DNA from: Aquiflexum gelatinilyticum | GTDB taxonomy: Bacteria; Bacteroidota; Bacteroidia; Cytophagales; Cyclobacteriaceae | DNA: 64,000 nt | Direction: 5' to 3' | Assembly: GCF_024741135.1 (NCBI RefSeq) | Contig: NZ_JANSUY010000015.1 | Coordinates: 62,001 to 126,000, forward strand | Shown here: piece by piece, positions 1 through 14,481 of the stretch | Layout: every line of letters starts with the position of its first letter | How positions within the stretch are numbered: the first letter of the stretch is position 1 | Program-made: the position numbers and the translations under genes | The notes under the pieces: model-generated | What the model saw: the letters and a program-made list of their open reading frames with translations, nothing else | Told to the model about the DNA's origin: nothing | Database searches by the model: none

Positions 1-1623
1 CAGGTAGCCCAAAGCCAAACCTGCAGGTATCAGCAAAATGAAAACTCCAAAGCTGAGTTTTTTATAACTGAAAACCTTTTTGAACAGGCTTTTATAGCCT
101 TTTAAAATGATCTTGAAAAACCTGCTGTCATCTCCCTTTTCTTCTTGCACCGCCTTTTTTCTATAGAAAAAATGATACAGCATCGGTAGGAAAATAAATG
201 CCACCAAAAGGGAAACCCCCAAAATCGCAGCCACAGAAACGGCCTGATCAAAAAACAAGGCTCCCGAAATCCCACTCAAAAACACCAAAGGAATAAATAC
301 CGCCAAGGTCGTCAGCACCGAACTGACCAAAGCCGACATCACTTCATTGACTCCCTGAACACAGGCTTCAAATATCGGCAATCCGTCAAGCCTCTTTCGG
401 GTGATATTGTCCAATACGATGATGGCATTGTCTATCAACATCCCCAAACCCAAGGCGAGGCCTGACAGGGATATGACATTGATCGAGATTTTGAAGAAGT
501 AAAAAACCAGAAAACTGATCAGCAAAGAAGTCGGCAAGGAAATACCGATAATGATCGGCATGCGGTAATTGCCCATAAAGAGGAACAATACCCCAAAAGC
601 AAACAATCCCCCAAATAGCAAGCTTGTCTGCAGGTTGCTGATGCCGGCATTCAGCAGAACGGATTGGTCTTGCGTCAACTCAAAATCCACTTGGTTGTAA
701 TCCGCTTTGAACAACTCTATTGCTTCATAAACCTTGGGAAGGAGTTCATTCATCTTGGCGGAAGCCTGCTTGTGCACAGTGATGACAAGCCCTTCTTTTT
801 CTCCAAAAAGGTGATGTCCCAAAACCTCATTCGTCTCGTATTGTACCATCGCGACCCTAGCCAAATCAACAGTAACTCCCTTTTCGGAAGTGACGGGCAG
901 CTTCATGATATCATGAGGGGAATCCACCCTTGTCGCCAACCGCAGGTAATACCTGAACTGACCGTCCTCCACACTGATCCCGGGTAGTTCTTCATTGCCA
1001 AATTGGATGGCATTGATCACATTGTCTTCCGTCATGCCAAGGGCACGGAGGGCAGCTTTGTCCGGGGTGACAGTGATGATACGCTCCTTCTTGCCATTGA
1101 TGTCGACCAAGGAAACCCCTTCCAACTGTTCGATCCTTTTCTTCAGGACATTTTCGGTCAACTGACTAATTTCTGTAAAGTCAAATCCAGGTTTGGGAAT
1201 GACCTGCACCCGGACGACAGGAATGTCATTGGTATTGATCCGGATGACTTGGGGACGGGCAAGGTCCGAAGGAAGGCTGTTGGTAAGTCTATCGATCTTT
1301 TCATTGACGTCGATATAGGCGAGTTCCATTTTGGTGCCATAGTCAAAAGTCAGTCGGATCGTGCCTGTTTCGCTTCCGGCTTTACTTTCTACATCTTCTA
1401 GCCCATTGAGTGTCATCAGGCCTTCCCTGATCGGGGAAAGCACATTCTGCTCTATGGCCTCAGGAGAAGCATTGGGATAGTTGACCTTGATGACGATCTG
1501 CGGGACATCGATCGGAGGCAAAAGTGAAATCGGAAGCGTCCTGAACACGATGACCGAAAAGACCATCAAGGCCAAAAAAACCATCAATACAGCTATGGGT
1601 CTTGCCAGTAAAAACCTTACCAT
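1..1623 (-). CDS. RND efflux permease, AcrB/HAE1-type (partial, C-terminus outside window)
   Basis: Translation of the minus strand from ATG at 1623 gives 541 residues with no stop before the window edge, about half of a usual ~1,000-residue RND pump. The N-terminus has the typical cytoplasmic start and first membrane helix (residues ~10-30), then a long periplasmic porter region, then helices 2-4 with the motif GLGMLIDNAIIV. The Asp at about residue 398 matches the proton-relay Asp of helix 4; the usual second Asp is Asn here. The protein is expected to drive proton-coupled export of drugs or other compounds through a tripartite pump. It starts 5 bp after the stop of the adaptor gene, so the two form an operon. 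The substrate cannot be read from sequence. Family is clear; the missing half was not seen. Confidence 0.93.
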   Translation of the reverse strand, partial: MVRFLLARPIAVLMVFLALMVFSVIVFRTLPISLLPPIDVPQIVIKVNYPNASPEAIEQNVLSPIREGLMTLNGLEDVESKAGSETGTIRLTFDYGTKMELAYIDVNEKIDRLTNSLPSDLARPQVIRINTNDIPVVRVQVIPKPGFDFTEISQLTENVLKKRIEQLEGVSLVDINGKKERIITVTPDKAALRALGMTEDNVINAIQFGNEELPGISVEDGQFRYYLRLATRVDSPHDIMKLPVTSEKGVTVDLARVAMVQYETNEVLGHHLFGEKEGLVITVHKQASAKMNELLPKVYEAIELFKADYNQVDFELTQDQSVLLNAGISNLQTSLLFGGLFAFGVLFLFMGNYRMPIIIGISLPTSLLISFLVFYFFKISINVISLSGLALGLGMLIDNAIIVLDNITRKRLDGLPIFEACVQGVNEVMSALVSSVLTTLAVFIPLVFLSGISGALFFDQAVSVAAILGVSLLVAFIFLPMLYHFFYRKKAVQEEKGDDSRFFKIILKGYKSLFKKVFSYKKLSFGVFILLIPAGLALGYL

Positions 1624-1628
1624 AGCGC

Positions 1629-2696
1629 CTAGTCTTTGAGGATTTGTACCGGTGCCTGATGTGCAAGCTGCAGGTTGTTGGAAGTGATGACGGTCATTCC
1701 GGATTCAATGCCGCTGAGGATTTCAACTTCCTTTCCGTTGTCTTTTCCTACCTCCACATAATTCCATTTTGATTCGTCTTTTTCAATCGTAAAGACAACG
1801 GGCCTTTGGGAACGGTACACCAATGCTTCTTTGGGGACGACGATGCTGTTGTTTTGTGGGGCGCGGATGATGGCGCGTGCGTTCATCCCTGGAAGCAATC
1901 CTTTGCCTCCGTTGATCAGGATATTGACCTGAACAAGTCCGTTTTCATCCACTTTGGGATTGATACTCCTGACCGAACCGCTGATGCCTTCCCCGCCACC
2001 GACGGGAAGGATTTCGGCTTTTTGACCTAGGGAAATAAGGTTGATGTCTGATTCGAGGACTTTCACTTTGAGTTCGAGCGCAGCCGTATTGATGACTTCA
2101 AGCATTTCGTCACCTGACTTGACAAGGCTTCCCGGCTTGGTCTTGAGGTCTGCCACCCGACCCGAAATCGGGGATTTGATGACAGTTTTGTCCACATCCA
2201 TCTTTGCTTCCTTGACGCCAATCTCTGCTGAAAAAAGTCCACTCTTCGCCTTAAGCTGTTCCTGTACCTGAGCTATTCTTTCTTCATCGCCGCTGTTCAT
2301 GATACTTTCGAAGCTCAGGATTTCCGAACGGTAAGTGGCGACTGCATTTTTGAGTTCTATGTTTGCCTTTTCAAGGTTCAATAAGCTTTCTGTCTGATCG
2401 AGGCGGGCGAGGATTTTACCTTTTTCGACAAAGTCACCTTCTTTCACGGTAAGTTCAATGAGGTATCCCGGCCGCTCGGCGATGATTTTGACCTGCTCTG
2501 CAGCTTCGATTTTGCCGGAGGCATTGATCAGGTAATCAAAAGTCCGCTTCTCGGCTTTGGCTATCCGGACAGGAGTAGCAGCCACTTCACCCCGGAAGGC
2601 CTCCAAGGGCTGATCCTGACTTTCGGCTTTTTCTTCCTTGCAGGAAATGGAAACAAACAATAAAAAAACAAATAAAAACAGATGGACAAACCGCAT
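1629..2696 (-). CDS. RND efflux periplasmic adaptor (membrane fusion lipoprotein)
   Basis: 355 residues. The N-terminus is a lipoprotein signal (SISC, Cys19). A biotinyl-lipoyl-like half motif (AERPGYLIELTVKEGDFV, residues ~73-90) is followed by a short coiled-coil hairpin (~100-165), the second lipoyl half (VIKSPISGRVADLKTKPGSL) and beta-barrel/membrane-proximal domains. This is the HlyD/AcrA adaptor layout. It should link the inner-membrane pump encoded directly downstream (5 bp gap) to an outer-membrane channel. The ATG at 2696 sits a few bases from a ~90-bp repeat that recurs three more times upstream, so its promoter or leader may be the source of that repeat. No outer-membrane TolC-like gene lies in this window. 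Confidence 0.93.
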   Translation of the reverse strand: MRFVHLFLFVFLLFVSISCKEEKAESQDQPLEAFRGEVAATPVRIAKAEKRTFDYLINASGKIEAAEQVKIIAERPGYLIELTVKEGDFVEKGKILARLDQTESLLNLEKANIELKNAVATYRSEILSFESIMNSGDEERIAQVQEQLKAKSGLFSAEIGVKEAKMDVDKTVIKSPISGRVADLKTKPGSLVKSGDEMLEVINTAALELKVKVLESDINLISLGQKAEILPVGGGEGISGSVRSINPKVDENGLVQVNILINGGKGLLPGMNARAIIRAPQNNSIVVPKEALVYRSQRPVVFTIEKDESKWNYVEVGKDNGKEVEILSGIESGMTVITSNNLQLAHQAPVQILKD

Positions 2697-2707
2697 ATTT
2701 TTTGAGA

Positions 2708-2794
2708 TTATTGAACAGGATTACAATAAACTAAGTTATTAAACAAAATCCAAAAGGGTGGATGTTAAAAAGTTTGAAAAAGTGAGTTCGAAAT
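2708..2794 (-). repeat. Direct repeat R1 (copy upstream of efflux adaptor)
   Basis: First of four same-orientation copies of a ~60-120-bp sequence. Shared stretches include GATTACAATAAACTAAGTT and GATGTTAAAAAGTTTGAAAA, as read on the plus strand. This copy lies between the adaptor start codon (2696) and the end of the first peptide/propeller block (2829), so on the minus strand it forms the 5' leader of the adaptor gene. Other copies are near 5260, 8159 and 11681. Confidence 0.85.
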
Positions 2795-2828: not shown

Positions 2829-3197
2829 CTAAATTAACTTAGATAAATCAACAACCATTTTCGTTTGCTTATTGCTATATTCTATCAAAAATGGACCATT
2901 TGTTTTCATTATTCCCTTCAGCAATGAAACAATATCTTTATCATGAACTAAATAGGAATTGTTCATTTTATTATTTTTTTTGCCCTCATGAAGAAAAATA
3001 ATTTTCCTAGAAGAAAAAACTGAAGGGAGATTTTTATTAAAATCAAATTGAGGGGAATCAGAAGCGACTACTATAATGACTTCGCCAGAACAATTACAGT
3101 TTCTTAGTTCAGTCTCTAAAAATAAATCCAACTCATTTGTGACTTTAGAAAATAGAAGGAGATTCGTCCAAAGAAATAATATCAGTAATTTTTCCAT
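2829..3197 (-). CDS. Small secreted or anchored protein, possibly a degenerate thioredoxin-like fold
   Basis: 122 residues. A hydrophobic N-terminal segment (residues ~3-19) suggests export or membrane anchoring; there is no clear lipobox. A CNC motif (Cys34, Cys36) precedes a predicted beta strand (EVIIVVAS). The C-terminal pattern PFLIEYSNKQTKMVVDL resembles PYLIKLNYGKITDIISL of the gene just upstream, suggesting that both are small thioredoxin-like proteins, this one without CxxC. It overlaps the upstream gene by 53 bp in another frame, so the pair is translationally linked. It is the last gene of the first block. No family is recognised with certainty; the fold is inference. Confidence 0.6.
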   Translation of the reverse strand: MEKLLILFLWTNLLLFSKVTNELDLFLETELRNCNCSGEVIIVVASDSPQFDFNKNLPSVFSSRKIIFLHEGKKNNKMNNSYLVHDKDIVSLLKGIMKTNGPFLIEYSNKQTKMVVDLSKLI

Positions 3198-3567
3198 AGT
3201 TTAATTTGATTAGATAGGGTTCTTTATAGTTTTTTGTAATATTTGCTACCTCATGTATCACAGAATAATCATTCAAATAAATGAAATTATCGAAATTTTG
3301 GATGCTTTTTTGACCACTTTTATTGTCAGTAAAATATAGGATTAATACCTCACTTTTCTTGTCTATTGAATTAATCTGATCGTAACAAAATTTACATGAT
3401 CTATCAGAAACCAGCACAACAAAATTAAAGTCTAGACATTCTTTGGGAAGCAATATTTGAATTGATGAAAATTCCAAATTTGATTTTCCACAACCCACAA
3501 TTCCAAAACTTAAAAACACAATTACAAATAGCCTAATCGACAATAATTTCAAGAATTTCATACCCAT
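3145..3567 (-). CDS. Thioredoxin-like lipoprotein with CxxC motif
   Basis: 140 residues. The N-terminal lipoprotein signal ends at GIVGC (Cys26). After a predicted beta strand (FNFVVLVS) comes DRSCKFC, a CxxC at Cys58-Cys61 placed where thioredoxin-fold proteins carry the redox motif. The C-terminal PYLIKLNYGKITDI resembles the cis-Pro strand of such folds. It may be a surface or periplasmic disulfide reductase/oxidase, possibly acting on the Cys-containing peptide of the same block. It overlaps the propeller gene upstream by 35 bp and the next gene by 53 bp, so the three are one transcript. The redox role and partner are inference from motif and context. Confidence 0.65.
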   Translation of the reverse strand: MGMKFLKLLSIRLFVIVFLSFGIVGCGKSNLEFSSIQILLPKECLDFNFVVLVSDRSCKFCYDQINSIDKKSEVLILYFTDNKSGQKSIQNFDNFIYLNDYSVIHEVANITKNYKEPYLIKLNYGKITDIISLDESPSIF

Positions 3568-4771
3568 CTGACTTATTAAAGTTTTTATTAATTAAAATTG
3601 ATTTATTCTCTAAAAAAATTGGTCCATAGGGAGAAAAGTCATCTGCTAAAGGAATATAAAGTTGATTTGATTTCCCATCGGTATTATTAATTACTTGAAG
3701 AAAAGAATGATACAAATAGTTGTTTTCTTCAAAAATATTGGAAGGGATCTTATTTTTTTCAACTACCTCATTATAGAGTAAAGCGATTCGATTAGAATCA
3801 ACTTTTATGTCAACAATTTGTGGCTTGGAATGCCTTAACAAAAATTCAATTTTTACACTTTCGTTTGGATCACTTCTCTCACCATTGTTCAGCCCAACAG
3901 AAAACGGCGTAAAAGACTGATTATAAAACTGAATTGGAATAATTTTCTCAAGGTTGAAGTTCAAATCATAAATAAAAATTTGATCAGAAAATTCATATAC
4001 AACATAAACTTTATCATTGTAAACATCAAATTTTGGAATGGAACTTGACCAATATCTCTTATTGGTTTTTATGGATTTTTTTATTTCATCGTATTCATTT
4101 AACCTTAAATGAAAAGAATGCGACAAATAATTATCTGAGGAATCTAAAACCACTTTAAGGAAAACATAGCTCGAAGAGAAAAAATCTTTAGTGTTTTTCA
4201 TGAAATCCATGCTTTCCGAAGTCATTAATAGAGTTTTTTTTGAATCATTTTTTAAAATTTTTGCCCTTGAAGCAATGGATGGCAAATAGAAGTTTTCATC
4301 TATATATTCGTTTAATTTTAATTTTTTAACAAATTGAAAATTTGAATCAAAAAAGGTAAGCATTGGAATATTACCTTGTTCTACAATAATTATATTATTG
4401 TCTAGATCCCAAAGTGGTTCTATAAAAGAACCTTGAAACCCTCCTTTAGAATCGGAAACCAGACTAATTAAGGCTAAATCTTCAAATCCAATATTACTGA
4501 AATGCAAATCAAGGTCAGGGTAATTAAAAAGCAATAGAGAATCACTCCTGAATTTCTCGATATTTGAAAATCTAAAATTAACTGAATCGGAATTCAGTTT
4601 AAGAGTATCAATAATTGAATAAGCCCCCAAATCAACGGTGATGTCTTTAATTTGAGGTATATTTTCCTGACTTTTTGTTTGGCAAGAATAGCCTATAGAG
4701 ATGAGAAACAAACTAAGGAAATTAGAATAAATACGGTGTTGAATGATATCAATGCAATTTTTAACAATCAT
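3533..4771 (-). CDS. Six-bladed beta-propeller lipoprotein (DUF4221-like)
   Basis: 412 residues. Lipoprotein signal ending GYSC (Cys30). The rest is beta-rich with recurring blade-like patterns such as FDSNFQFVKKL and YDLNFNLEKII. The length, repeating strands and lack of enzyme motifs match the TolB-like/DUF4221 six-bladed propellers that Bacteroidota carry beside small secreted peptides; this assignment comes from family memory and was not searched. It lies 93 bp downstream of a peptide gene, separated by an intrinsic terminator, and overlaps the thioredoxin-like gene downstream. A binding or sensing role for the peptide is a plausible guess only. Confidence 0.65.
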   Translation of the reverse strand: MIVKNCIDIIQHRIYSNFLSLFLISIGYSCQTKSQENIPQIKDITVDLGAYSIIDTLKLNSDSVNFRFSNIEKFRSDSLLLFNYPDLDLHFSNIGFEDLALISLVSDSKGGFQGSFIEPLWDLDNNIIIVEQGNIPMLTFFDSNFQFVKKLKLNEYIDENFYLPSIASRAKILKNDSKKTLLMTSESMDFMKNTKDFFSSSYVFLKVVLDSSDNYLSHSFHLRLNEYDEIKKSIKTNKRYWSSSIPKFDVYNDKVYVVYEFSDQIFIYDLNFNLEKIIPIQFYNQSFTPFSVGLNNGERSDPNESVKIEFLLRHSKPQIVDIKVDSNRIALLYNEVVEKNKIPSNIFEENNYLYHSFLQVINNTDGKSNQLYIPLADDFSPYGPIFLENKSILINKNFNKSDGYEILEIIVD

Positions 4772-4826
4772 AAATATTTTTTGTGGGCTTTTGCTGTACC
4801 TAATTTAGCTTAAGAATTAAAAAAAT

Positions 4827-4856
4827 AAAGTCTGCCCTAAATATAGGGCAGACTTT
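4827..4856 (-). terminator. Strong intrinsic terminator between peptide 1 and its propeller gene
   Basis: Perfect 13-bp stem (arms 4827-4839 and 4844-4856) with a 4-nt loop. On the minus strand it is followed by a U-rich tract (TTTATTTTTTT). It lies 8 bp after the peptide stop codon and before the propeller start at 4771. Most transcripts should end here, with read-through needed to express the lipoproteins. Confidence 0.85.
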
Positions 4857-4864
4857 GATTAAAA

Positions 4865-5062
4865 TTAGGTTTGTGGTTTCGGTCTTACCGGTTTAGTACA
4901 ATTATCCGAAGGTCCGTCACAGACTGCAATACCTTGAACTGAACTTAAAGTAGCCCATTCCCAATCAGTATTTGCATTAACGTTTTTATTTGAACCTACC
5001 AATATTGGTAAGCTTAAAATAAACAGACTTAACAAAACTTTACTAGTCTTTCTCATAATCAT
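4865..5062 (-). CDS. Small secreted peptide 1 (two Cys)
   Basis: 65 residues. The basic start MIMRK is followed by a hydrophobic core (residues ~9-23) and a likely signal-peptidase site near VNA (28-30). The mature part of ~35 residues has two Cys (48 and 55, CDGPSDNC) and a proline/lysine-rich tail. Together with the neighbouring propeller lipoproteins this recalls the NVEALA-type peptide loci of Bacteroidota, but the diagnostic motif is not clearly present. The start could also be Met3; peptide 2 begins with the same MIM. The 167 bp upstream are almost identical to those of peptide 2, the best evidence that this short gene is real. Function unknown. Confidence 0.75.
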   Translation of the reverse strand: MIMRKTSKVLLSLFILSLPILVGSNKNVNANTDWEWATLSSVQGIAVCDGPSDNCTKPVRPKPQT

Positions 5063-5229
5063 TTCATATTAAATTAAAGCTTCCACACACAGATAGGCAG
5101 TGCGGTTCTCCTAAAAAAGTATGCTTTACCGGTAGATTTACTTTCTGTGAACTAAATTACCCCCCCCATCTGCATTTCCTAATTCTTCCAGAAAATTAGT
5201 CGACTAATTTAAAATTGAAACGGATAAGT
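5063..5229 (-). promoter_or_regulatory. Conserved promoter/leader block of peptide 1
   Basis: About 167 bp directly upstream of peptide 1 match the region upstream of peptide 2 (7942-8109) over nearly their whole length, while the peptides differ. On the minus strand, in order: an 18-bp perfect palindrome, TTAG (5179-5182) as a candidate -33 box, a 19-nt spacer ending in eight G (5160-5167), TAATTTAG (5152-5159) as a candidate -7 box, and a ~90-nt leader. Each box differs by one base from the Bacteroidota consensus TTTG and TAnnTTTG. The leader can pair CACAGA with TCTGTG around a conserved TTTTTTAGGAGAACC segment. Confidence 0.65.
5193..5210. promoter_or_regulatory. 18-bp perfect palindrome (candidate operator), copy 1
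   Basis: AAATTAGTCGACTAATTT reads the same on both strands. It lies just upstream of the candidate promoter of peptide 1 and is conserved without change at 8074-8091 upstream of peptide 2. A dimeric activator or repressor site is the simplest reading. Confidence 0.6.
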
Positions 5230-5259
5230 TTTCAGATAGAAAATTTTATTATCACCAAT

Positions 5260-5319
5260 AAGGGTGGATGTTAAAAAGTTTGAAAAAGTAAGTTCAAAAT
5301 TGGATCCTGAAGGAAAAAC
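5260..5319 (-). repeat. Direct repeat R2 (truncated copy)
   Basis: Contains GGGTGGATGTTAAAAAGTTT and a following segment (AAGTTCAAAAT, then GGAAAAA) shared with copy R4. The GATTACAATAAACTAAGTT half found in the other copies is missing. It lies between the end of the second block (5336) and the peptide 1 promoter block. Confidence 0.8.
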
Positions 5320-5335
5320 CTTACTTAAACTCCCT

Positions 5336-6517
5336 TTACTCTAATTCCTTCAATTTCATTTTCAATATTACAGGAAAATCGGTGTCTCCTTCTTCTTTTT
5401 TGAGTTTTTGGATCTGAACCATGTGCTTCTTCAAAATCGGTTCCTCAGCAATTTCCAGCAATTGATACAGTGAAATGGAAAACAAAACGGAGTTGCCCTC
5501 CACAGCCATTGGGCCTGCCATCTTTTCCGAAAGGCTATTTTCTTTAGTGATATAAGTTTGATTAGTTGATTTGTCATATACCCCGGTTCTATAATCAACA
5601 ACCTTTTCGGCTATAGCTCTTTTCTTTTTGTTCCATGTAAAAAAAAGATGGCTTTCCGATTCCTCAAAAAAGCGCGTTAGAAATGAAATTTGTCCGGAAG
5701 CCAAAGACTCGAAATACTTAATCACTTGATGTTTTTTATCTGTTGGCCACATTGGTTCATTACTTTCAAACTGGTATTTGGGAAAGGTTTCCGCTCCGTT
5801 TATTTCAAAAATCACCGAGTTTGCAGGCTCATGGTACAAAAACCCTCCCTTTTCAGAACCTGAAATATGGCCTGAGATCCATCTAAGCAGCATCGCATCC
5901 ATTCCCTTAGGGAAAGGGAAAAATTTATTGACACTAGTCCCGGAACTATCTAGCGTCTCAAAATTGTAAAAGTCTTCATTAAAATAGGTAATTGACATTC
6001 CAATATTTCTGTCTTTATCGACAGCAATCATTTCGGATTGGCTTTTTAACCTAATCTTTCTTTTGAAGTTCCCTTCCAAATCAAAAAAGGAAATTGACAT
6101 TCCTGACATACTTACCACAAGAAGTTCTTTTGCTGATTTGCTCAAAGCAAAATCAGAATAATCAAGCAAATCCTCAGGCCCCTCTCCCAACTTGCCGATT
6201 TTGGCCAATGCCTTTCCTTCAGGTGAAAATTTGAGAAGTGTCCCAAAATCCAGGTCGAGTAGGTAATAATTACCTTCAAAAGTTTGAAGCCTATAAATAC
6301 TTACCAAAGTCTCCCCATCCGGAACATCCAAAGGAATGATTTCTTCGATTTCAAATAGATTCTCAATTTCGATCTCTGTTTTGACAAAAACAGTATGCAT
6401 TGCTTTGAAATCAGTTTGATCTACTTCTTCTATCACTTTCGCTTCCTTTTTTCCCTCCTTGCAAGAAACAGTCAATATCATTACCAAAGCAAACAATAAC
6501 AAAGGGAGTAGACGCAT
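5336..6517 (-). CDS. Six-bladed beta-propeller lipoprotein
   Basis: 393 residues from ATG 6517. This start gives a clean lipoprotein signal (MRLLPLLLF, then TVSC with Cys19); an in-frame start at 6562 would add 15 residues before it. The mature part shows blade-like strands such as GNYYLLDLDFGTLLKFSPEG and FDLEGNFKRKIRL, and the GEGPE-type turn (GKLGEGPEDL) that recurs in this propeller family. It is probably an outer-membrane or periplasmic lipoprotein that binds a partner rather than an enzyme. It follows another propeller gene by 74 bp, so it is likely co-transcribed with it and with peptide 2 by read-through. Function unknown. Confidence 0.7.
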   Translation of the reverse strand: MRLLPLLLFALVMILTVSCKEGKKEAKVIEEVDQTDFKAMHTVFVKTEIEIENLFEIEEIIPLDVPDGETLVSIYRLQTFEGNYYLLDLDFGTLLKFSPEGKALAKIGKLGEGPEDLLDYSDFALSKSAKELLVVSMSGMSISFFDLEGNFKRKIRLKSQSEMIAVDKDRNIGMSITYFNEDFYNFETLDSSGTSVNKFFPFPKGMDAMLLRWISGHISGSEKGGFLYHEPANSVIFEINGAETFPKYQFESNEPMWPTDKKHQVIKYFESLASGQISFLTRFFEESESHLFFTWNKKKRAIAEKVVDYRTGVYDKSTNQTYITKENSLSEKMAGPMAVEGNSVLFSISLYQLLEIAEEPILKKHMVQIQKLKKEEGDTDFPVILKMKLKELE

Positions 6518-6591
6518 ATTTCTTTTGAATATCGAAAACTTTAAGAAATAACTACAGACCAAATCAAAAGTTAATTTGAGGAACTGGCTTA

Positions 6592-7638
6592 CTATTTTGT
6601 ATCCATCGGAAAAACATAAAGTTTATTGGTAATTAACCCTTGAGCATATATTTTCCTTTCATATTTATCATAATGAAATGACATAAAATTATAATCATCA
6701 TCCTCTGATCCCGTTACAAACCGATAAATATTCCTTAAATAAATTTCATTATTTTTTAATTGAAGTTGAAGTAAATGCCTTGTTCCTGAACGATCCAGAC
6801 CTATCCGATCTGTAAATGTTATAAAAATCATATCACCAATTACTTGTGAGTCTAGAATAAGTTGAGGAATGGATCTTTTATCTTCTGCCTTTTCCAAAGC
6901 AGCTAAGTCTACCTTTAACGAATCAAATCCCCTTTTTATAGGTTCATATTCTTTTAAATCAATACTGCTCAAAATTTTTCCTTTTGAATTATAAATCTCA
7001 AGAACACCAAACGTAACTGATGTAACTATGTATTCGTTATTTTCATTTACTTGTACAAGTTTGGATTGATTGTTTTTTCTACTGAATGGATCAGGTATTT
7101 TTGATCCAAAATCAAATAATTTCTCCCCTTTTTTATTTGCCTTTGTAATTGCATTTCCTGACTCATCAGGAAGTCTAGAAAATAGAAAATTCCCTTCTAA
7201 ATCGATACTAAACCTCTTCCCTGTTGTGGCAAATGGAATTTTGAATGAATTCAAAAATCTACCTGAATTAGATTGAAAAAAATTCATTCTTCTATTTTGA
7301 ATATCCTCAATAAAAAGTGTGTCGTTTTGATAAACAACGTTTATAGGTTGTTGTAACTCACCTGGACCGTCACCTTTGTTATTTATCAAATATTGGGGAT
7401 CAAAATTTTTATCAGTTGCAATTAGAACTCCCTGACTACGATCAACTATGAAAATTTGGTCTTCATTTGAAACTAAGTTAATATTGGCTATATAGTATAA
7501 ATCTTTAATGGATTCTATTTCTCTTTCTGGTTTTAATAATTTAACCTTTATTTCATTATTTTTTGTTTTGCAAGAATTGAACATCAAAATAAAAAAAAAC
7601 ATAATTATAATTGACTTAACCTTCATACTTGTTTTCAT
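6592..7638 (-). CDS. Six-bladed beta-propeller lipoprotein
   Basis: 348 residues. Lipoprotein signal ending FNSC (Cys23); Met5 is an alternative start. Residues ~40-120 hold the first blades with the family turn NNKGDGPGELQQP, followed by DTLFIEDIQNRRMNFF and GNFLFSRLP strands. No catalytic motif is seen. It lies 93 bp downstream of peptide 2 beyond an intrinsic terminator, the same spacing and layout as peptide 1 and its propeller gene. It differs strongly in sequence from the other four propellers in this array, so the copies are old or exchanged between lineages. Peptide binding or surface sensing is inference. Confidence 0.72.
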   Translation of the reverse strand: MKTSMKVKSIIIMFFFILMFNSCKTKNNEIKVKLLKPEREIESIKDLYYIANINLVSNEDQIFIVDRSQGVLIATDKNFDPQYLINNKGDGPGELQQPINVVYQNDTLFIEDIQNRRMNFFQSNSGRFLNSFKIPFATTGKRFSIDLEGNFLFSRLPDESGNAITKANKKGEKLFDFGSKIPDPFSRKNNQSKLVQVNENNEYIVTSVTFGVLEIYNSKGKILSSIDLKEYEPIKRGFDSLKVDLAALEKAEDKRSIPQLILDSQVIGDMIFITFTDRIGLDRSGTRHLLQLQLKNNEIYLRNIYRFVTGSEDDDYNFMSFHYDKYERKIYAQGLITNKLYVFPMDTK

Positions 7639-7676
7639 GTTTTTTATAATTATATAGAGATTTTATAGCACTAAAA

Positions 7677-7720
7677 ACTCTGATGATTGCAAGGTTAAAA
7701 ATTCTTGTAATCATCAGAGT
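7677..7720 (-). terminator. Intrinsic terminator between peptide 2 and its propeller gene
   Basis: 17-bp stem (7677-7693 with 7704-7720) with one wobble position and a 10-nt loop. It is followed on the minus strand by TTTTTAG. It ends 11 bp after the peptide stop. Unrelated in sequence to the hairpin after peptide 1 but in the same position. Confidence 0.8.
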
Positions 7721-7731
7721 AATTAAATAAT

Positions 7732-7941
7732 TTAAGGTATGTCATCGCAGTACGATGAGGAAACTGATCCATTTGCACCATAACAGGTTACATAACTAGA
7801 TCCGGCTTCGCACCGGGTTCCAGTACAAGAAATCCGTTCTGCGTTTGCACACATAGTAACAGATTGGCAAGCAAATACCTCATTCAATGTCGTTAATAAT
7901 AAGGCACAGGATAAAGAAAGAATTAATTTTTTCATAATCAT
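7732..7941 (-). CDS. Small secreted Cys-rich peptide 2 (six Cys after signal)
   Basis: 69 residues. The start MIMKK and a hydrophobic stretch to about residue 19 form a signal; cleavage after VFA would leave Cys25 as the first residue. Whether this is a signal-peptidase I product or a lipid-anchored Cys is open. The mature part has six Cys (25, 31, 39, 44, 53, 65), enough for three disulfides, and is rich in Gly/Ser. It resembles peptide 1 only in its first residues, yet the upstream blocks are near-identical. Candidates are a toxin-like, signalling or structural surface peptide. No known family is recognised. Confidence 0.75.
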   Translation of the reverse strand: MIMKKLILSLSCALLLTTLNEVFACQSVTMCANAERISCTGTRCEAGSSYVTCYGANGSVSSSYCDDIP

Positions 7942-8109
7942 TTCATTTTAAATATACGATTCCACACACAGACAGGCAGTGTGGTTCTCCTAAAAAAGTT
8001 TGCTCAACCGGTAGATTTACTTTCTGTGAACTAAATTACCCCCCCCCCAACTGCATTTCCTAATTCTTCCGGAAAATTAGTCGACTAATTTAAAATTGAA
8101 ACGGGTAAG
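7942..8109 (-). promoter_or_regulatory. Conserved promoter/leader block of peptide 2
   Basis: Near-identical to 5063-5229. On the minus strand: palindrome, TTAG (8060-8063), a 21-nt spacer ending in ten G (8039-8048), TAATTTAG (8031-8038), then the conserved leader. Beyond scattered base substitutions the main length difference from the peptide 1 block is two extra G in the tract, which changes the candidate promoter spacer from 19 to 21 nt. Confidence 0.65.
8074..8091. promoter_or_regulatory. 18-bp perfect palindrome (candidate operator), copy 2
   Basis: Identical to the palindrome at 5193-5210 and at the same distance from the candidate promoter except for the G-tract difference. Confidence 0.6.
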
Positions 8110-8158
8110 TCGTCAATTAGGAAAAACAATTATTCTTAATATTTAAAAATTACCAAAA

Positions 8159-8246
8159 CGCATATCACTCGTGGTTATTGAATAGGATTACAATAAACTA
8201 AGTTATTAAACAAATTCAAAAGGGTTGATGTTAAAAAGTTTGAAAA
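8159..8246 (-). repeat. Direct repeat R3
   Basis: Contains GATTACAATAAACTAAGTT and GATGTTAAAAAGTTTGAAAA. It also keeps CGCATAT at its left end, the reverse complement of an ATATGCG start-codon context as at the efflux adaptor gene. No gene starts here: that frame stops after six codons. It lies between the third block (8275) and the peptide 2 promoter block. Confidence 0.85.
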
Positions 8247-8274
8247 CAATAATCTCTATGCTCTTTCCTTCCAT

Positions 8275-9885
8275 TCAATTTTCCCTTTCTAATTTATAAA
8301 TACTAATTATCCTATATCCAGAGACTTTGATATTAAAAAACTCAGGATTATTGTAAAGGCTATTTTTGTTTATCATTTCAAATTTCTCTTTTTCATCTCT
8401 TGGATTCAATAAGGACATAAAATAATCCGCGTCATTCAAATTGGAAACAAAGTGAAGTCTTTCGGCTTCTTTTTTGGGAAAATTCATGGTATTGATCTTT
8501 CCGATAAAATCATGGCTGTAAATCATCAAACTATCATCATCTGTTTTTTCCAATAGATATTTCAATGCCTGCTTGTAAGACAAGCCATAATAATCACGCT
8601 CAAAGTTGTGTTCGACATTTCGAACCAATTCATTGAAATACACATTTTGATGGGGATGATTTTTAAACATAAAAACCAATGTTTGGATTAGGTTAAAAAC
8701 AATAAAAACACTTAGAATTCCTGAGACAAAGATTCTTTTTTTCAGTAGGAAACTACTTCTTACAAATAAAAAAAGAGACATGAACCCCCTCATTCCGATC
8801 AAAAGAAAAAAAGGATAGATGAAATATAAGTGCCTCCATCCATTATAGAGAACTGAATTAAAAATAATCACCGCAATAAGAGGCCCTAAAAATAAACCCA
8901 GAAATATCAAATCCATTTGATTCGATCGGGATTTTAAATAACTCCATTTTTGATTGTATAAAGATTTAGAAATAGAAAAAATTCCTGCACAAAAAAACAG
9001 GACTATTGAAAGCGGAGTAGTAACCAAAATCCAAGAGGGTATATAATACCAAGGCAAGTTATTAGAATTAACCATTTGACCCCAAAAAAGAATATTACCA
9101 TACCATCTGAACTTTTTCATGCTGTTAAATGAGTACAATAAATTACCAAGTGGGTCCTCCCAAAGTATTGGCCAAAAAATAAGAGTTGAAAGGCATAGGG
9201 AAAAAATAAAAATTGATGATACTACAAGAAAATTCCTAATTAACTGGCTAGACGACCGTATTTGATAGATTCTTAATAAAATAAGCAATAAAGTGAAAAT
9301 AGGCATATAAATACCAACTATTCTAGTGCCTACTACCAGACCACATGCAACTCCATGCCATACAGCACTTGAATTAGTTGGTTGGAAAAAAAATTTAACC
9401 ATTGTAAAGGCGGAAATAATAAAAAAAGACATCAAGGGGATATCTTTAGGATTATAAAAAGAATCAGCAAATAGACGTGGGCTCAGTAAGAAAAAAATCA
9501 CCCCCAATAGGCCTATTTTCCAGTCCTTATACCGCCATTCTATGATTTTATAAAAGAAGATCAAACTCACGCAAAATAGTAAAAAAACCAAAAGATGACG
9601 TAAGAGAAATACGTCCTTACTGTTGTCAATATTAAAAAGTAACTCCAAACTATATGCTGTAAATTGAAAAATAAGCCCATAGTCCCGATGGTCATAATTT
9701 ATTAGATTAATTTCGGTTCCTTTTGGAATACTTGAAAATAAACCAAATTTTTCATTCACATAATCAAATGCTACAATCCCATGTTTCCTTTCAATCGGTT
9801 CATCAATGGAAATTCCATAGTCACCTACTTTCAAAGTCCCAAATAATAAAAGTATTGCAAAGAAAAAATACACATAATTATTCAT
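8275..9885 (-). CDS. Polytopic GT-C-type glycosyltransferase (ArnT/PMT-like)
   Basis: 536 residues with about ten hydrophobic helices. The first extracytoplasmic loop carries an acidic motif (YGISIDEPIERKHG, residues ~24-37), typical of the catalytic Asp/Glu of GT-C lipid-linked sugar transferases. A later loop holds NHPHQNVYFNELV, a motif seen in membrane mannosyl/glucosyl transferases of this type. The C-terminal ~120 residues are soluble. It probably transfers a sugar from a polyprenyl carrier to an acceptor outside the inner membrane. It is the last gene of the third block, 51 bp after a thioredoxin-like lipoprotein, so glycosylation of a block product is possible but unproven. Confidence 0.7.
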   Translation of the reverse strand: MNNYVYFFFAILLLFGTLKVGDYGISIDEPIERKHGIVAFDYVNEKFGLFSSIPKGTEINLINYDHRDYGLIFQFTAYSLELLFNIDNSKDVFLLRHLLVFLLFCVSLIFFYKIIEWRYKDWKIGLLGVIFFLLSPRLFADSFYNPKDIPLMSFFIISAFTMVKFFFQPTNSSAVWHGVACGLVVGTRIVGIYMPIFTLLLILLRIYQIRSSSQLIRNFLVVSSIFIFSLCLSTLIFWPILWEDPLGNLLYSFNSMKKFRWYGNILFWGQMVNSNNLPWYYIPSWILVTTPLSIVLFFCAGIFSISKSLYNQKWSYLKSRSNQMDLIFLGLFLGPLIAVIIFNSVLYNGWRHLYFIYPFFLLIGMRGFMSLFLFVRSSFLLKKRIFVSGILSVFIVFNLIQTLVFMFKNHPHQNVYFNELVRNVEHNFERDYYGLSYKQALKYLLEKTDDDSLMIYSHDFIGKINTMNFPKKEAERLHFVSNLNDADYFMSLLNPRDEKEKFEMINKNSLYNNPEFFNIKVSGYRIISIYKLEREN

Positions 9886-9936
9886 TCCAATAAAATGTTC
9901 ATTAATAAAAAATCCATAATAAAATCATTTAAAACT

Positions 9937-10443
9937 TCATTCATCTTTTAACTCAATCAATTTTTCTTTAAAATCAGGGAATGACGGATTGCCCATTCCA
10001 ACTATCTCATTGTCTTTAACCAAATAGGAAATAAAAGTCCACTCCTTTCCTTTAACGTTTAATTCCCTAAACTCTTCACTTGGATCATGAATAATTGGAT
10101 GGGTAAAGCTAAACTGCTTTAGATTCCTGATCAATTTTGCTGTATCCTTCTCTGATACATAGAATAAAAATGCAATATCTTCAAATTCAGAAATAGCACT
10201 TTGCCAATCCAACTTGAGTGGAGAATGTGTATCGCCGTGTCTTGCAAAAACCACTACCTTATATTTTCTATCATACCAGCTTTTATCAAACTTTTGTGAT
10301 TTATCTATTTCAATAAATTCTAGGTTTTTGGGTAGAACAATTTCTCGAAATTCACTTTCACTTTTTTTATTATTACATCCTGTAATAGCCGTACCTAGTG
10401 CAAAGCTTAATACGAGGACAAATTTGAAATTATCTCTTAGCAT
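9937..10443 (-). CDS. Thioredoxin-fold lipoprotein lacking the CxxC motif
   Basis: 168 residues with lipoprotein signal ending ITGC (Cys23). The region YKVVVFARHGDTHSPLKLDW aligns by position with the strand-plus-active-site of redoxins (usually FWATWCxxC), but no Cys is present. PIIHDPSEEFRELNVKG and FISYLVKDNEIVGMGNP match the later redoxin strands. Apart from the lipobox Cys there is none in the mature protein, so thiol chemistry is unlikely; it may be a binding or scaffold variant. It starts 5 bp after the propeller gene upstream, a tight operon. Fold assignment is from pattern recognition. Confidence 0.65.
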   Translation of the reverse strand: MLRDNFKFVLVLSFALGTAITGCNNKKSESEFREIVLPKNLEFIEIDKSQKFDKSWYDRKYKVVVFARHGDTHSPLKLDWQSAISEFEDIAFLFYVSEKDTAKLIRNLKQFSFTHPIIHDPSEEFRELNVKGKEWTFISYLVKDNEIVGMGNPSFPDFKEKLIELKDE

Positions 10444-10448
10444 TTTTC

Positions 10449-11579
10449 TTATTTTTTGAGTTTCAAGTAAGCCAAAACAGGATTGTCATCTATTTCAATA
10501 CCTGAATTCAATTGTAAATTCAGTAATTCAGCATTTTGTAATAAAACTTTGGGAGGTATTGAAAATATAAGAAGGTTTGAACCTGTCATGCCAATTGGAT
10601 ACTGTAACAGTTCTATCCAAGGTCCCTCTAGCTTATTTTTAACAATTTCTTTTGATCGTTTATCAAAAAATACTTGATATAATTCTGAAGTATTTTCTTT
10701 TTGAAATACCAAATTAGTATAGCCAAGGTCAGGACTTTCAAAGTGATTCCTAATGCTAAAGAACCCATTATTATTTAGTTTCTCAAAAGCGACCATCATA
10801 TCATTTTCAAAAAAATCCTGTTGAATATTATTTCTGCCAAAATCAATAATATATTTTGTTTTTAAAGCTTCCTCTGTTAACTCATAAATTTTATTGCTAA
10901 ATGATTCAGTTAAAAATGTACTGCCATTATTCGTGAAAAAATTCCGTTCAATAACGGGCATCATTTTTCCTGAGTAATCATTATTAAGAAAACCTGAAAT
11001 GATGTTTCCCTGAAGATCTAACTTAGAGACACGATATTCAGCAAAGGGAAAGTTATAACTGGAATATATGTAATATGTCTCTCCAATTTTTTCGAATGAA
11101 AACCCGATAATTTCTAATTTAAGCTTATTCACGATTTTTTCACCTATTATTGAAAAATAGATAATTTCTGAATAAGCTCCTTTTCCACTTAAAATCTCAA
11201 TATTGTCACCTGAAATAATAAAATCGGCTATGCTATTGACCCGCTCAGGTCCTTCACCAACACTTATAATTTGGGAAACATATCTTCCTTTCTGATCAAA
11301 TTTGTGAATCCCATCTCTGATTTTTTCATCAAAAACGAAAATGAAATCTTCTGTAGTCTTGACCGTCAAGTTATTTGAAAGAAAGTTGTTTTGGGTGGTT
11401 TCTAAAGGAATTAATGTGTAAATCTCAAATGAATGGGAATCCATTTGAATCTTGTCAAAAACGAATGTAAAACTTTCTTCATCTCCCACACCTGTATTTG
11501 ATTTGACGGGTTTTTCACAAGCGTAAAAAGTAAATACAAAAGCAAATATTTTAAGTATTCTTAAATTCCTACTTACCAT
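10449..11579 (-). CDS. Six-bladed beta-propeller lipoprotein
   Basis: 376 residues. Lipoprotein signal ending FYAC (Cys21). Blade features: DFIFVFDEKIRDGIHKFDQK, the family turn ISVGEGPERVN, and YRVSKLDLQGNII. It is the first gene of the third block, followed after 5 bp by the Cys-less thioredoxin-like lipoprotein and then by the GT-C transferase. Unlike the first two blocks there is no peptide gene directly upstream; 11580-11906 holds repeat R4 and no convincing small ORF. Likely a surface or periplasmic binding protein; function unknown. Confidence 0.7.
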   Translation of the reverse strand: MVSRNLRILKIFAFVFTFYACEKPVKSNTGVGDEESFTFVFDKIQMDSHSFEIYTLIPLETTQNNFLSNNLTVKTTEDFIFVFDEKIRDGIHKFDQKGRYVSQIISVGEGPERVNSIADFIISGDNIEILSGKGAYSEIIYFSIIGEKIVNKLKLEIIGFSFEKIGETYYIYSSYNFPFAEYRVSKLDLQGNIISGFLNNDYSGKMMPVIERNFFTNNGSTFLTESFSNKIYELTEEALKTKYIIDFGRNNIQQDFFENDMMVAFEKLNNNGFFSIRNHFESPDLGYTNLVFQKENTSELYQVFFDKRSKEIVKNKLEGPWIELLQYPIGMTGSNLLIFSIPPKVLLQNAELLNLQLNSGIEIDDNPVLAYLKLKK

Positions 11580-11680
11580 ATTTAAAATGAATTATGCTGT
11601 AATCAAGACTAAATAGTGAATTCAATTTAACAAGATTTCTGATAATTTTGAGATTTAAAATATTTCCATAATCAAAAAAT

Positions 11681-11800
11681 CGCATATTACTTGTGGTTAT
11701 TGAATATGATTACAATAAACTAAGTTCTTAAACAAATTCAAAAGGATAGATGTTAAAAAGTTTGAAAAAATAAGTTCAAAATGGAATTCTGATGGAAAAA
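11681..11800 (-). repeat. Direct repeat R4 (longest copy); only feature in 11580-11906
   Basis: Carries GATTACAATAAACTAAGTT with one change, GATGTTAAAAAGTTTGAAAA, and the right-hand AAGTTCAAAAT/GGAAAAA segment shared with R2. Its left end has CGCATAT as in R3. A 38-codon frame opens from this ATG on the minus strand and ends at the next gene's start, but shows no signal or conserved pattern. The rest of this 327-bp gap shows nothing I can name. Confidence 0.85.
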
Positions 11801-11906
11801 TTTATAAAGAGTGCCATGACATCAAATAATCAACCTCGCTTTTTAGATCAAAAGATAACTCTGGCTTTTTATTTCCTTTTTCTTTTTTTTAAAATTTCTT
11901 CAAGAT

Positions 11907-13013
11907 TCAATAATCAAATTCAACCACATTTGGATTATCATCCTCTGATAACCCGTAAATTTTTCTCGAAACTTCATCAACAGTAAAGCTTGATAGTTTA
12001 AAGTTGCTTAGGATAAAATGGTTAATTGGTTTTCCCTCAAAATTAAACTCAAAAATTCTGTCAGGTTCTGACGAGTCTGTCAAATTCCTGAAATTCTTAT
12101 TAGAATACAAAAGAAAAAAACTGTCTTTCCCCACATAGGAGTCTAAATATTGGTCCTTAAGGTTGTCAAGGTTATAATCAGGCATCTGATAACCCATACT
12201 GTAAGCGATGGTAAATTCAGGAATTTGGTCAATAGGACCGAAAAAAGTTCTAGTAGTTTGTTTATCTAGATCGATTATTTCAAAATAATCTACTATTATG
12301 CCGGCTTTCACAAACATTCTTTTTTGGAGGTTTCCTTTCAAAACACCTTGATGAATGTTGCTTACCAAATTGGCATCGAGATTTTCAACTTTGTGTCCGT
12401 TGGGTAATTGTCTGCCAATCAAAATATCCTTCCAATTTCCAAAAAATGCTAAGGTATCCCCACTAAATGACATTTCGATGTATTTTGTCCATCCATCTAC
12501 CCCATTTCCAAATATTGAATTTGTTGATGCCAAAGTTGCATCTGTCATAAAAACCGTACTTCTTTTAGGACTTACCTGTTCTGACGCTAATTTGGATGAA
12601 TCTGAAATATCAAATTTTGAGAATAGAATCCGCTCAAAATCATATATCCAAAACTCGTCATTTTCTGAAATATGCTCAATTTGTTGTACTTGGGTTATCT
12701 CACCAGGCCCTAACCCATCTATTCCTTTGCTTGAAACATATTTCCTGTTTAGGGGCTCTAGGATATGAATTTTGTCATTCTGGACTGTTTTACTCTCTGC
12801 AACGATCAAATAATTCCCGGTGAAGTGAATTTTGTATGGAATTAAAAGTTCATCATATAAATGTTTTGTACCGATTAGCTTACTCGGTGCAGGAAGATTA
12901 TCCAAGGAAAAGACATGACGTTCTACATCCTTTTCTGCACAGCCAAAAAAAAGAGCAACTGTGTAAATCAAAAGCGGTAAAAGTCCTTTCCAAAAATTAA
13001 GTGGGTTAACCAT
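11907..13013 (-). CDS. BF3164-like six-bladed beta-propeller lipoprotein (TolB-like)
   Basis: 368 residues. Lipoprotein signal ending LFFGC (Cys25). Residues ~85-130 show EPLNRKYVSSKGIDGLGPGE and a blade (EFWIYDFERILFSKFDI), typical of the BF3164/TolB-like branch of six-bladed propellers. The C-terminus has DRIFEFNFEGKPINHFIL, the closing blade. It stands alone between repeat R4 and a 245-bp upstream gap and is the fifth and most distant propeller of the array. Its family is known mainly from conserved neighbourhoods in Bacteroidota; the ligand is unknown. Confidence 0.72.
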   Translation of the reverse strand: MVNPLNFWKGLLPLLIYTVALFFGCAEKDVERHVFSLDNLPAPSKLIGTKHLYDELLIPYKIHFTGNYLIVAESKTVQNDKIHILEPLNRKYVSSKGIDGLGPGEITQVQQIEHISENDEFWIYDFERILFSKFDISDSSKLASEQVSPKRSTVFMTDATLASTNSIFGNGVDGWTKYIEMSFSGDTLAFFGNWKDILIGRQLPNGHKVENLDANLVSNIHQGVLKGNLQKRMFVKAGIIVDYFEIIDLDKQTTRTFFGPIDQIPEFTIAYSMGYQMPDYNLDNLKDQYLDSYVGKDSFFLLYSNKNFRNLTDSSEPDRIFEFNFEGKPINHFILSNFKLSSFTVDEVSRKIYGLSEDDNPNVVEFDY

Positions 13014-14140: not shown

Positions 14141-14233
14141 TGTACGTACAACAATGCTGAAACACATTAATTCCTTAAAAGAAAACTGAATAATTTTAAA
14201 AATTTACGTACATTTAAAAAAACCTCACGTACA
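14141..14233 (+). promoter_or_regulatory. Three ACGTACA repeats, candidate antitoxin operator
   Basis: TGTACGTACA (a 10-bp palindrome, 14141-14150), TACGTACA (14205-14212) and ACGTACA (14227-14233) lie upstream of and touching the antitoxin start codon. RHH antitoxins usually repress their own operon by binding such short repeats. The repeats are seen; the regulator is inference. Confidence 0.55.
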
Positions 14234-14481
14234 TGGCCAGAAAACTCACACTTAATGTAGACGAAAACATCATCGAAAAGGCAAAGGTCTATGCTTCAGA
14301 GACGGGGCGAAGTCTATCCGGTTTGGTCGAAAATTACCTAAAAAATCTAGTCGAAGAACATCATCCTGAAAATTCCCAAAAGGAAAAAATAACAAAACTC
14401 GCAGGTAAAATCCAGATCCCCGAGGATTTTGATGAAGAAAAAATCCTTAGAGAATACTTTGAAGAAAAACATCTCAAATGA
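14233..14481 (+). CDS. RHH-type antitoxin (DUF6364-like)
   Basis: 82 residues. KLTLNVDENIIEKAKVYA (residues ~4-21) is a ribbon-helix-helix start, followed by SLSGLVENYLKNL. The acidic, flexible C-terminus should wrap the partner toxin. The stop overlaps the next start as ATGA, typical of toxin-antitoxin pairs. It probably neutralises the PIN ribonuclease and represses the operon through the ACGTACA repeats at 14141-14233. Confidence 0.82.
   Translation: MARKLTLNVDENIIEKAKVYASETGRSLSGLVENYLKNLVEEHHPENSQKEKITKLAGKIQIPEDFDEEKILREYFEEKHLK

What the first reader, a model, noticed from the sequence alone, without database searches (positions are those of the whole stretch)
2829..13013. Array of peptide / beta-propeller / thioredoxin-like blocks: candidate undescribed surface-peptide system
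Seen: two short secreted Cys-containing peptides, five divergent six-bladed-propeller lipoproteins, one CxxC lipoprotein, two related small proteins without CxxC and a GT-C membrane glycosyltransferase, all on one strand. Known: propeller families of this type (DUF4221, TolB-like/BF3164) cluster with small peptides in Bacteroidota without assigned function. Inference: the peptides are exported, possibly disulfide-bonded or glycosylated by block products, and bound by the lipoprotein propellers.
Basis: partly seen in the sequence, partly recalled or inferred. Interest (0 to 1): 0.78.

Follow-up and report, generated by a model that had tools for sequence, protein, structure and literature searches.

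The report
Phase-variable secreted-peptide and propeller cassettes
A Bacteroidota bacterium carries a row of swappable gene cassettes that make small secreted, probably disulfide-bonded peptides and matching propeller-type lipoproteins, behind promoters whose runs of Gs look like on/off switches; what the pairs do is untested, but rival-killing with self-protection, or self-recognition, would fit.

Summary
The array is real and more organised than reported. Window 2829-13013 (minus strand) is a low-GC stack of blocks directly upstream of an hlyD-RND efflux operon. Each of the two peptide genes has (1) a leader 87% identical to the other's, although the peptides and propellers behind them differ; (2) a G-tract (8 and 10 Gs) just upstream of a Bacteroidota -7-like box; (3) a terminator-like hairpin before its propeller. 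In 31 peptide-propeller pairs from own and related genomes, 18 peptide genes have a simple-sequence repeat within 250 nt upstream, against 0 of 169 other genes (0 of 101 with intergenic upstream). Peptide and propeller types co-vary (28 pairs, r=0.81, shared ancestry not removed); pep2-type peptides occur with propC-type propellers in three genomes outside the family, once beside the orthologous RND pump. The inter-block repeat copies the hlyD upstream region. Best reading: phase-variable cassettes of Sec-secreted peptides with cognate propeller lipoproteins, most likely effector plus binding/immunity partner. Switching, binding, export route and function are inferred. Glycosylation is not supported. 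No paper in the listings searched describes it; NVEALA peptides and double-glycine bacteriocins do not fit.

The parts
11907..13013 (-). propA, lipoprotein, TolB-like propeller via its congener counterpart
   Evidence: 299/358 identical to L069 5170-6276, which matches PF15869 E 1.2e-15
11670..11768 (-). inter-block repeat R (copy of hlyD upstream region plus start codon)
   Evidence: 92/106 identical to hlyD upstream, reaching past ATG
10449..11579 (-). propB, PF17170 propeller lipoprotein
   Evidence: E 3.1e-30
9937..10443 (-). small lipoprotein without CxxC
   Evidence: congener copy 150/168 identical
8275..9885 (-). GT-C-like membrane protein, no counterpart in the congener stretch
8148..8246 (-). 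repeat R (hlyD upstream region plus start codon)
   Evidence: 83/93 identical to hlyD upstream, reaching past ATG
7942..8091 (-). leader of pep2: palindrome 8074-8091, G10 tract 8039-8048, TAATTTAG -7-like box, 5' region
7732..7941 (-). pep2, secreted peptide with six family-invariant Cys
7671..7726 (-). terminator/attenuator-like hairpin between pep2 and propC
   Evidence: -21.9 kcal/mol, z -6.1
6592..7638 (-). propC, NHL-type propeller lipoprotein, partner type of pep2
5336..6562 (-). propD, PF17170 propeller lipoprotein (likely ATG at 6517)
   Evidence: E 1.9e-22
5243..5300 (-). partial repeat R
   Evidence: 43/45 identical, not reaching ATG
5063..5210 (-). leader of pep1: palindrome 5193-5210, G8 tract 5160-5167, TAATTTAG, 5' region
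4865..5062 (-). pep1, secreted peptide with two Cys
4825..4856 (-). terminator/attenuator-like hairpin between pep1 and propE
   Evidence: -22.0 kcal/mol, z -6.3
3533..4771 (-). propE, lipoprotein next to pep1; fold not shown
   Evidence: 92/368 identical to L127 8494-9693, z 32
3145..3567 (-). CxxC lipoprotein
2829..3197 (-). small secreted protein of unknown kind
2681..2779 (-). repeat R in its presumed original place, hlyD upstream region with start codon
1629..2696 (-). hlyD, RND periplasmic adaptor
   Evidence: TIGR01730 E 9.6e-49
1..1623 (-). RND permease (part; continues outside the window)

Best explanation
The array is a set of exchangeable, phase-variable cassettes. Each peptide gene starts at a promoter whose spacer contains a hypermutable repeat (here G8 and G10), so single cells would switch a peptide on or off by slippage. 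The peptide is exported by Sec, forms disulfides (perhaps helped in some blocks by a CxxC lipoprotein), and is made in excess over the propeller because of the hairpin between them. The propeller lipoprotein encoded next recognises its own peptide. The neighbouring RND pump, which takes substrates from the periplasm, may expel the peptide. Different cassettes carry different peptide-propeller pairs behind similar leaders, as expected for short-range antagonism with a cognate protective partner, or for self-recognition. Shown here by sequence: anatomy, repeats, recurrent pairing by type, insertion in front of hlyD, RND orthology in one second family. Inferred: switching, excess, binding, disulfides, export route, antagonism.
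For: Leaders 87% identical in the window while mature peptides are 18% and the following propellers 30% identical; similar in G026, G114, G082. Repeats upstream: 18 of 31 peptide genes (12 G, 1 GT, 5 T) vs 0 of 169 other genes and 0 of 101 genes with intergenic upstream of similar AT content; 7 of 10 in the loci hit by the propC protein searches. G-tracts start at -102 to -114 in 12 of 12 G-type cases. Hairpin in the gap: 21 of 26 vs 8 of 22 control gaps. Peptide/propeller co-variation r=0.81 in 28 pairs, 0.79 between loci. All 3 genomes outside the family with a pep2-type peptide also have a propC-type lipoprotein within about 1 kb: G225 and G213 directly downstream, G299 upstream with one gene between. 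PropE and the CxxC protein have relatives in a block of G233. A pair block or peptide directly precedes hlyD in 7 same-family loci (window, L069, L127, L128, L129, L131, L137) and in G225; the G225 permease's best hit in the own genome is the array-adjacent pump (961 vs 259 bits). Peptide genes with a stop (Aquiflexum), a split frame (G213) or a displaced start (Algoriphagus CAU 1675) lie beside open propC-type genes.
Against: No toxin or defence family match; mature peptides are not cationic (median net charge -1). Propellers are large for immunity proteins; a 2012 survey states that beta-propellers had not been found among immunity proteins and that only one immunity family looked like a lipoprotein (PMC3482391, passages). 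In G114 a peptide gene remains while its propeller is interrupted beside a transposase gene, though its upstream region is cut too. Co-variation is partly shared ancestry (signal-peptide control r=0.36, also at the permutation floor; rank correlation only 0.24). Tract-length variation within a strain was not testable. In the own genome the C12 pair has no repeat and C33 a T-tract; 4 of 6 peptide genes of family f22 have none. Four tandem blocks of G108 carry similar, not unrelated, cargo. Control gaps also have hairpins in 8 of 22. The window's -33 region is degenerate.
Confidence: 0.5

Rival explanations
1. Peptide pheromone or kin-recognition system: the peptides are ligands and the propeller lipoproteins surface receptors; phase variation diversifies identity, no killing.
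For: Same anatomy; neutral to acidic peptides with paired Cys; ligand binding by another Bacteroidota propeller lipoprotein is documented (XusB, PMC13142918 passages).
Against: A propeller lipoprotein alone cannot signal inward; I noticed no regulator or sensor kinase gene inside the arrays when reading ORF lists by eye, but ran no search for one.
Confidence: 0.22
2. Envelope housekeeping with the RND pump: Cys peptides act as periplasmic chelators or stress buffers, and the propellers as chaperones of pump or outer-membrane assembly.
For: RND neighbour conserved in G225 of another family; Cys-rich peptides; CxxC lipoproteins.
Against: Different cargo behind similar leaders and repeat-bearing promoters do not suit housekeeping; the permease scores best with general multidrug RND models, below the cut-off of each listed model; several arrays were not seen near the pump in the stretch fetched.
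Confidence: 0.12
3. Variable surface lipoproteins that dodge phages or predators; the peptides are secondary.
For: Lipoprotein-rich, low-GC array (0.31 vs 0.42-0.48 around) with repeat-bearing promoters.
Against: The repeat and conserved leader sit in front of the peptide, not the propeller; no PADLOC match in the ten window proteins scanned.
Confidence: 0.1
4. No functional link: fast-evolving lipoprotein genes accumulate at a permissive site and the short ORFs are decaying or spurious.
For: Damaged or displaced peptide reading frames in three loci; transposase genes in the G114 arrays.
Against: Six invariant Cys across eight aligned sequences, homologues in other families, pairing and repeats above controls.
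Confidence: 0.05

Closest known systems
DUF4221 (PF13970), PF17170 and PF15869 propeller lipoproteins of Bacteroidota
   Same: propB and propD match PF17170; propA's counterpart matches PF15869; DUF4221 propellers follow peptides in G225 and G082
   Different: No function in the family names; most members seen in this genome have no peptide; propC and propE have no Pfam hit
NVEALA peptides (PF14055)
   Same: Short secreted Bacteroidota peptides, said to lie near TolB-like lipoproteins (recalled, not tested)
   Different: No model match to either peptide, none over cut-off in the own genome, 0 of 198 phylum genomes drawn, while the Bacteroides ihuae control rang
Promoter-spacer phase variation by homopolymeric tracts
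   Same: G-tract lies beside the -7-like box, at a near-constant distance from the start codon
   Different: Known cases that I recall are mainly pathogenic Proteobacteria; here in Cytophagales, and in some relatives with GT or T repeats at other distances
Polymorphic toxin-immunity cassettes
   Same: Similar leaders, exchangeable cargo, adjacent partner, arrays; partner gene open where the peptide frame is damaged
   Different: No toxin domain found; propeller lipoprotein as partner, which the 2012 survey had not found (PMC3482391 passages)
Double-glycine peptides with C39 ABC exporters
   Same: A propeller-type lipoprotein sits next to such peptides in G070 (L086; peptide type read by eye)
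   Different: Here Sec-type signal peptides and no such exporter in the array

Membership tests
NVEALA (PF14055) | match to the curated model | tested here: not met
Six-bladed propeller lipoproteins (PF17170/PF15869/DUF4221) | model match over cut-off or propeller fold | tested here: met
   propB and propD by Pfam, propC by fold, propA through its counterpart; propE inconclusive
Double-glycine / C39 bacteriocin | GG leader and C39 ABC exporter in the cluster | tested here: not met
   hydrophobic Sec-type N-termini and no ABC exporter ORF among those listed (by eye; families)
Simple-repeat phase-variable locus | repeat tract in promoter or start region | tested here: met
Simple-repeat phase-variable locus | tract length and expression vary within a clone | not testable with these tools
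   needs reads from cultures
Polymorphic toxin-immunity cassette | similar leader with exchangeable, pairwise matched cargo | tested here: met
   shared ancestry not excluded
Polymorphic toxin-immunity cassette | recognised toxin domain | tested here: not met
Polymorphic toxin-immunity cassette | partner protects against the peptide | not testable with these tools
   needs experiment
Thioredoxin-like lipoprotein (3145-3567) | CxxC and thioredoxin fold | tested here: inconclusive
   CxxC conserved; no thioredoxin among PDB sequence matches; fold not predicted

The most novel reading that the evidence does not exclude
A new class of inter-bacterial system: phase-variable cassettes of Sec-secreted disulfide peptides, expelled by a dedicated RND pump, each neutralised by a cognate propeller lipoprotein acting as immunity protein, with the arsenal growing by insertion of cassettes in front of the pump adaptor gene.
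Probability: 0.27. Interest if true: 0.9.

Novelty: categorically new. Interest (0 to 1): 0.72.

Why it matters
It would point to a function for several large orphan lipoprotein families of Bacteroidota (DUF4221, PF17170, TolB-like), suggest simple-repeat promoter switching in Cytophagales, and link a particular RND pump to peptides instead of drugs. Each step is testable: the pairs, the tract and the pump are named.

Tried and rejected
Structured-RNA reading of the leader: no Rfam match reaching its curated score, no consensus pairs, single folds no better than shuffles. Anti-phage defence: no PADLOC match in ten window proteins. NVEALA: no match. Thioredoxin homology by PDB profile: none. 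Peptide fold: modelled (pLDDT 79), no PDB match with E under 0.1. Three of five G8TA places in the own genome are not such leaders. Leader-model hits outside the family (10 of 22 genomes, E 2.8e-4 or weaker): four of the ten were read and none had such a pair. A short leader-like match of 31 nt on contig C1 was read (L071) and had no pair.

Literature: searches and 85 of the held PMC library; I saw listings (for and later, partial ones) and no listed paper is on such a system. One search found one paper that holds 'BF3164' once; it was not read. One search was for the promoter consensus. Subscription papers are not covered.

Caveats: several loci were fetched because they resembled the leader or the peptide, so repeat and peptide counts are partly circular; the propC-only scan and the 7-of-10 subset are the less biased counts. 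Rows dropped: one search dropped 6 of 24 candidate ORFs by eye; searches dropped 8 and 5 of 32 (spurious, duplicate, near-identical) and added 4 pairs of L156 by hand; the hairpin count left out 5 of 31 pairs with gaps under 35 nt. Identities are over aligned columns only, and one value (L156, mature 1.00) is an artefact of a tiny alignment. A regex for the -7 box missed or misplaced several leaders; spacings were then read by eye and carry no statistics.
Full report
Setting. The window lies in a 5.0-Mb genome.

Observation. The array 2829-13013 is on the minus strand. Going with transcription: propA; propB, a small lipoprotein and a GT-C-like protein; pep2, propC, propD; pep1, propE, a CxxC lipoprotein and a small protein; then hlyD and two RND permeases. 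GC is 0.31 against 0.48 in hlyD and 0.42 on the right. Four of five large lipoproteins are supported as propellers; propE is not proven.

(a) Leaders. The two peptide genes share an upstream region, 87% identical over 200 nt, although the mature peptides are 18% and the following propellers 30% identical over aligned columns. Each leader has an 18-nt palindrome, then a G-tract (8 and 10 Gs), TAATTTAG, and about 100 nt before the ATG. TAATTTAG resembles the flavobacterial -7 box TAnnTTTG (PMC9723704, passages). Reading by eye, several relatives show TTTG or CTTG 18 to 23 nt upstream of that box with the G-tract inside the spacer; the window's own -33 element is degenerate. (b) Between peptide and propeller there is a hairpin (z -6.1 and -6.3). 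(c) The inter-block repeat is 83/93, 92/106 and 43/45 identical to the region upstream of hlyD; the first two run past its start codon. A query of leader plus repeat found copies only in this array. In two relatives (L128, L137) a 5' piece of hlyD (342 and 275 nt aligned, 81-83% identical to the full gene) lies between blocks. So blocks were inserted or duplicated in front of hlyD; the order of events is not known.

Comparative evidence. A scan of named genomes by propC-family protein alone found 6 loci. The pep2-type peptide gene is upstream in 6 of 6: intact in 4, with a stop in the signal peptide in Aquiflexum lacus, and with its usual start out of frame, a later in-frame ATG remaining, in Algoriphagus CAU 1675. 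A pep2-family profile matched 11 of 390 genomes of the order, three outside the family. All three have a propC-type lipoprotein nearby: G225 and G213 directly downstream of the peptide region, G299 upstream with one gene between (z at least 11 in each comparison with five propC-type proteins for G213 and G299; G225). In G213 the peptide frame is split. In G082 the propeller after the pep2-type peptide is only distantly propC-like.

A sequence model of the leader matched 22 of 390 genomes at E<=0.01, 12 of the same family. Of the 14 hits with E below 1e-8, 13 abut a peptide gene; of 9 same-family hits not used to build the model, 6 do. The exceptions are G053 C9 (a 169-aa lipoprotein), G233 and G033. 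A leader copy in G070, used in the model, precedes a lipoprotein without a detected peptide.

Repeats. Within 250 nt upstream, 18 of 31 peptide genes have a simple repeat, against 0 of 169 other genes in the same loci. A stricter control with only intergenic upstream sequence gave 0 of 101, mean AT 0.65 against 0.68 for the peptide genes. Twelve are G-tracts starting at -102 to -114; one is a GT repeat at -71; five are T-tracts at -59 to -125, which are weaker evidence in AT-rich DNA. In G108 four tandem blocks have leaders 94-99% identical, one with a pure G9 and three with interrupted tracts of equal length. This suggests that spacer length matters, with some copies locked; that is inference.

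Pairing. In 28 non-redundant pairs, similarity of mature peptides and of propellers correlates (r=0.81; between different loci 0.79; permutation p at its floor 2e-4). The signal-peptide control gives r=0.36, also at the floor, so common descent contributes; no partial test against a species tree was made. Rank correlation is weak (0.24), because most pairs are unrelated; the signal comes from the few related types. A second possible type: propE and the CxxC lipoprotein have relatives in one block of G233 (z 32 and 11), whose peptide resembles pep1 by eye only; alignment scores do not separate it from background.

Site. In the window the order is sbcD - (toxin-antitoxin-like genes) - rlpA - array - hlyD - RND. 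In relatives with other block content, blocks lie between sbcD and hlyD-RND on either side of rlpA: L127, L128, L129, L131 and L137 on the hlyD side, L124 on the sbcD side. In L079 the pair lies between sbcD and rlpA, with hlyD not seen. In a congener (hlyD 331/355 identical), propA, propB and the small lipoprotein are kept (84-89%), while the rest has no clear counterpart in the 14-kb stretch; propC and pep2 were not found in its whole genome either. In family f22, G225 has five pairs between hlyD and a permease, and G213 has propellers and peptides within 4 kb of hlyD and a permease, without sbcD or rlpA in the stretch read. The G225 permease matches the array-adjacent pump at 47% (961 bits) and the next pump at 22% (259 bits). 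The G213 permease was not tested. Arrays or pairs in G108, G026, G039, G114, G001, G418, G496 and others were not seen next to the pump within the fetched stretch, and genomes without any array were not checked for this gene order.

Mechanism. Shown: secretion-type signals, cassette structure, repeats, hairpins, pairing by type, insertion in front of hlyD. Inferred: phase switching, excess of peptide, disulfides (27 of 31 with even Cys; pairs were selected for at least 2 Cys), peptide-propeller binding, RND export, and antagonism or recognition. Antagonism is favoured because cargo differs behind similar leaders and because damaged peptide frames lie beside open partner genes (one clear stop, one split frame, one doubtful start). 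Against it stand the lack of a toxin domain, near-neutral charge, and a G114 peptide gene whose partner is interrupted.

Known context. PF17170, PF15869 and DUF4221 carry no function in their names. A Bacteroides propeller lipoprotein, XusB, binds siderophores (PMC13142918, passages), so ligand binding is a known role for a propeller lipoprotein, though XusB is seven-bladed and another family. The 2012 polymorphic-toxin survey had found no propeller immunity protein (PMC3482391, passages). I rate the system categorically new as a combination, while its parts are of known kinds; the literature check is limited to the held library.

Noticed in passing
L086 (G070:C18) 3084-8867: Double-glycine-type peptides (by eye) next to a propeller-like lipoprotein and a C39-type ABC exporter: another export route for peptides near such lipoproteins.
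   Followed up: partly
own genome C12 (L029 7889-9317) and C33 (L034 7317-10160): Two further Cys-peptide plus propeller pairs with hairpins in the gap but without the G-tract leader (C33 has a T-tract).
   Followed up: partly
L026 (C13:14000-25671): Tandem run of DUF4221 lipoproteins without a peptide gene kept as real, at a contig end (five hits).
   Followed up: no
window 14233-14900: Small protein followed by a PIN-domain-like protein, looks like a VapBC toxin-antitoxin pair (by eye).
   Followed up: no
window 5193-5210 and 8074-8091; also L070, L067: Perfect 18-nt palindrome upstream of the promoter, also (core) in two other genera and, in L067, near a double-glycine-type peptide; possible operator.
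   Followed up: partly
L077, L080 (G114): Transposase genes interrupt or cut blocks of this array.
   Followed up: no
L094 around 6749 (C55): Short tandem repeats beside a G-tract, unrelated to the leaders.
   Followed up: no
L068 13921-17978 (G108): Six neighbouring genes of about 210-250 aa, several with related starts, next to the peptide array.
   Followed up: no
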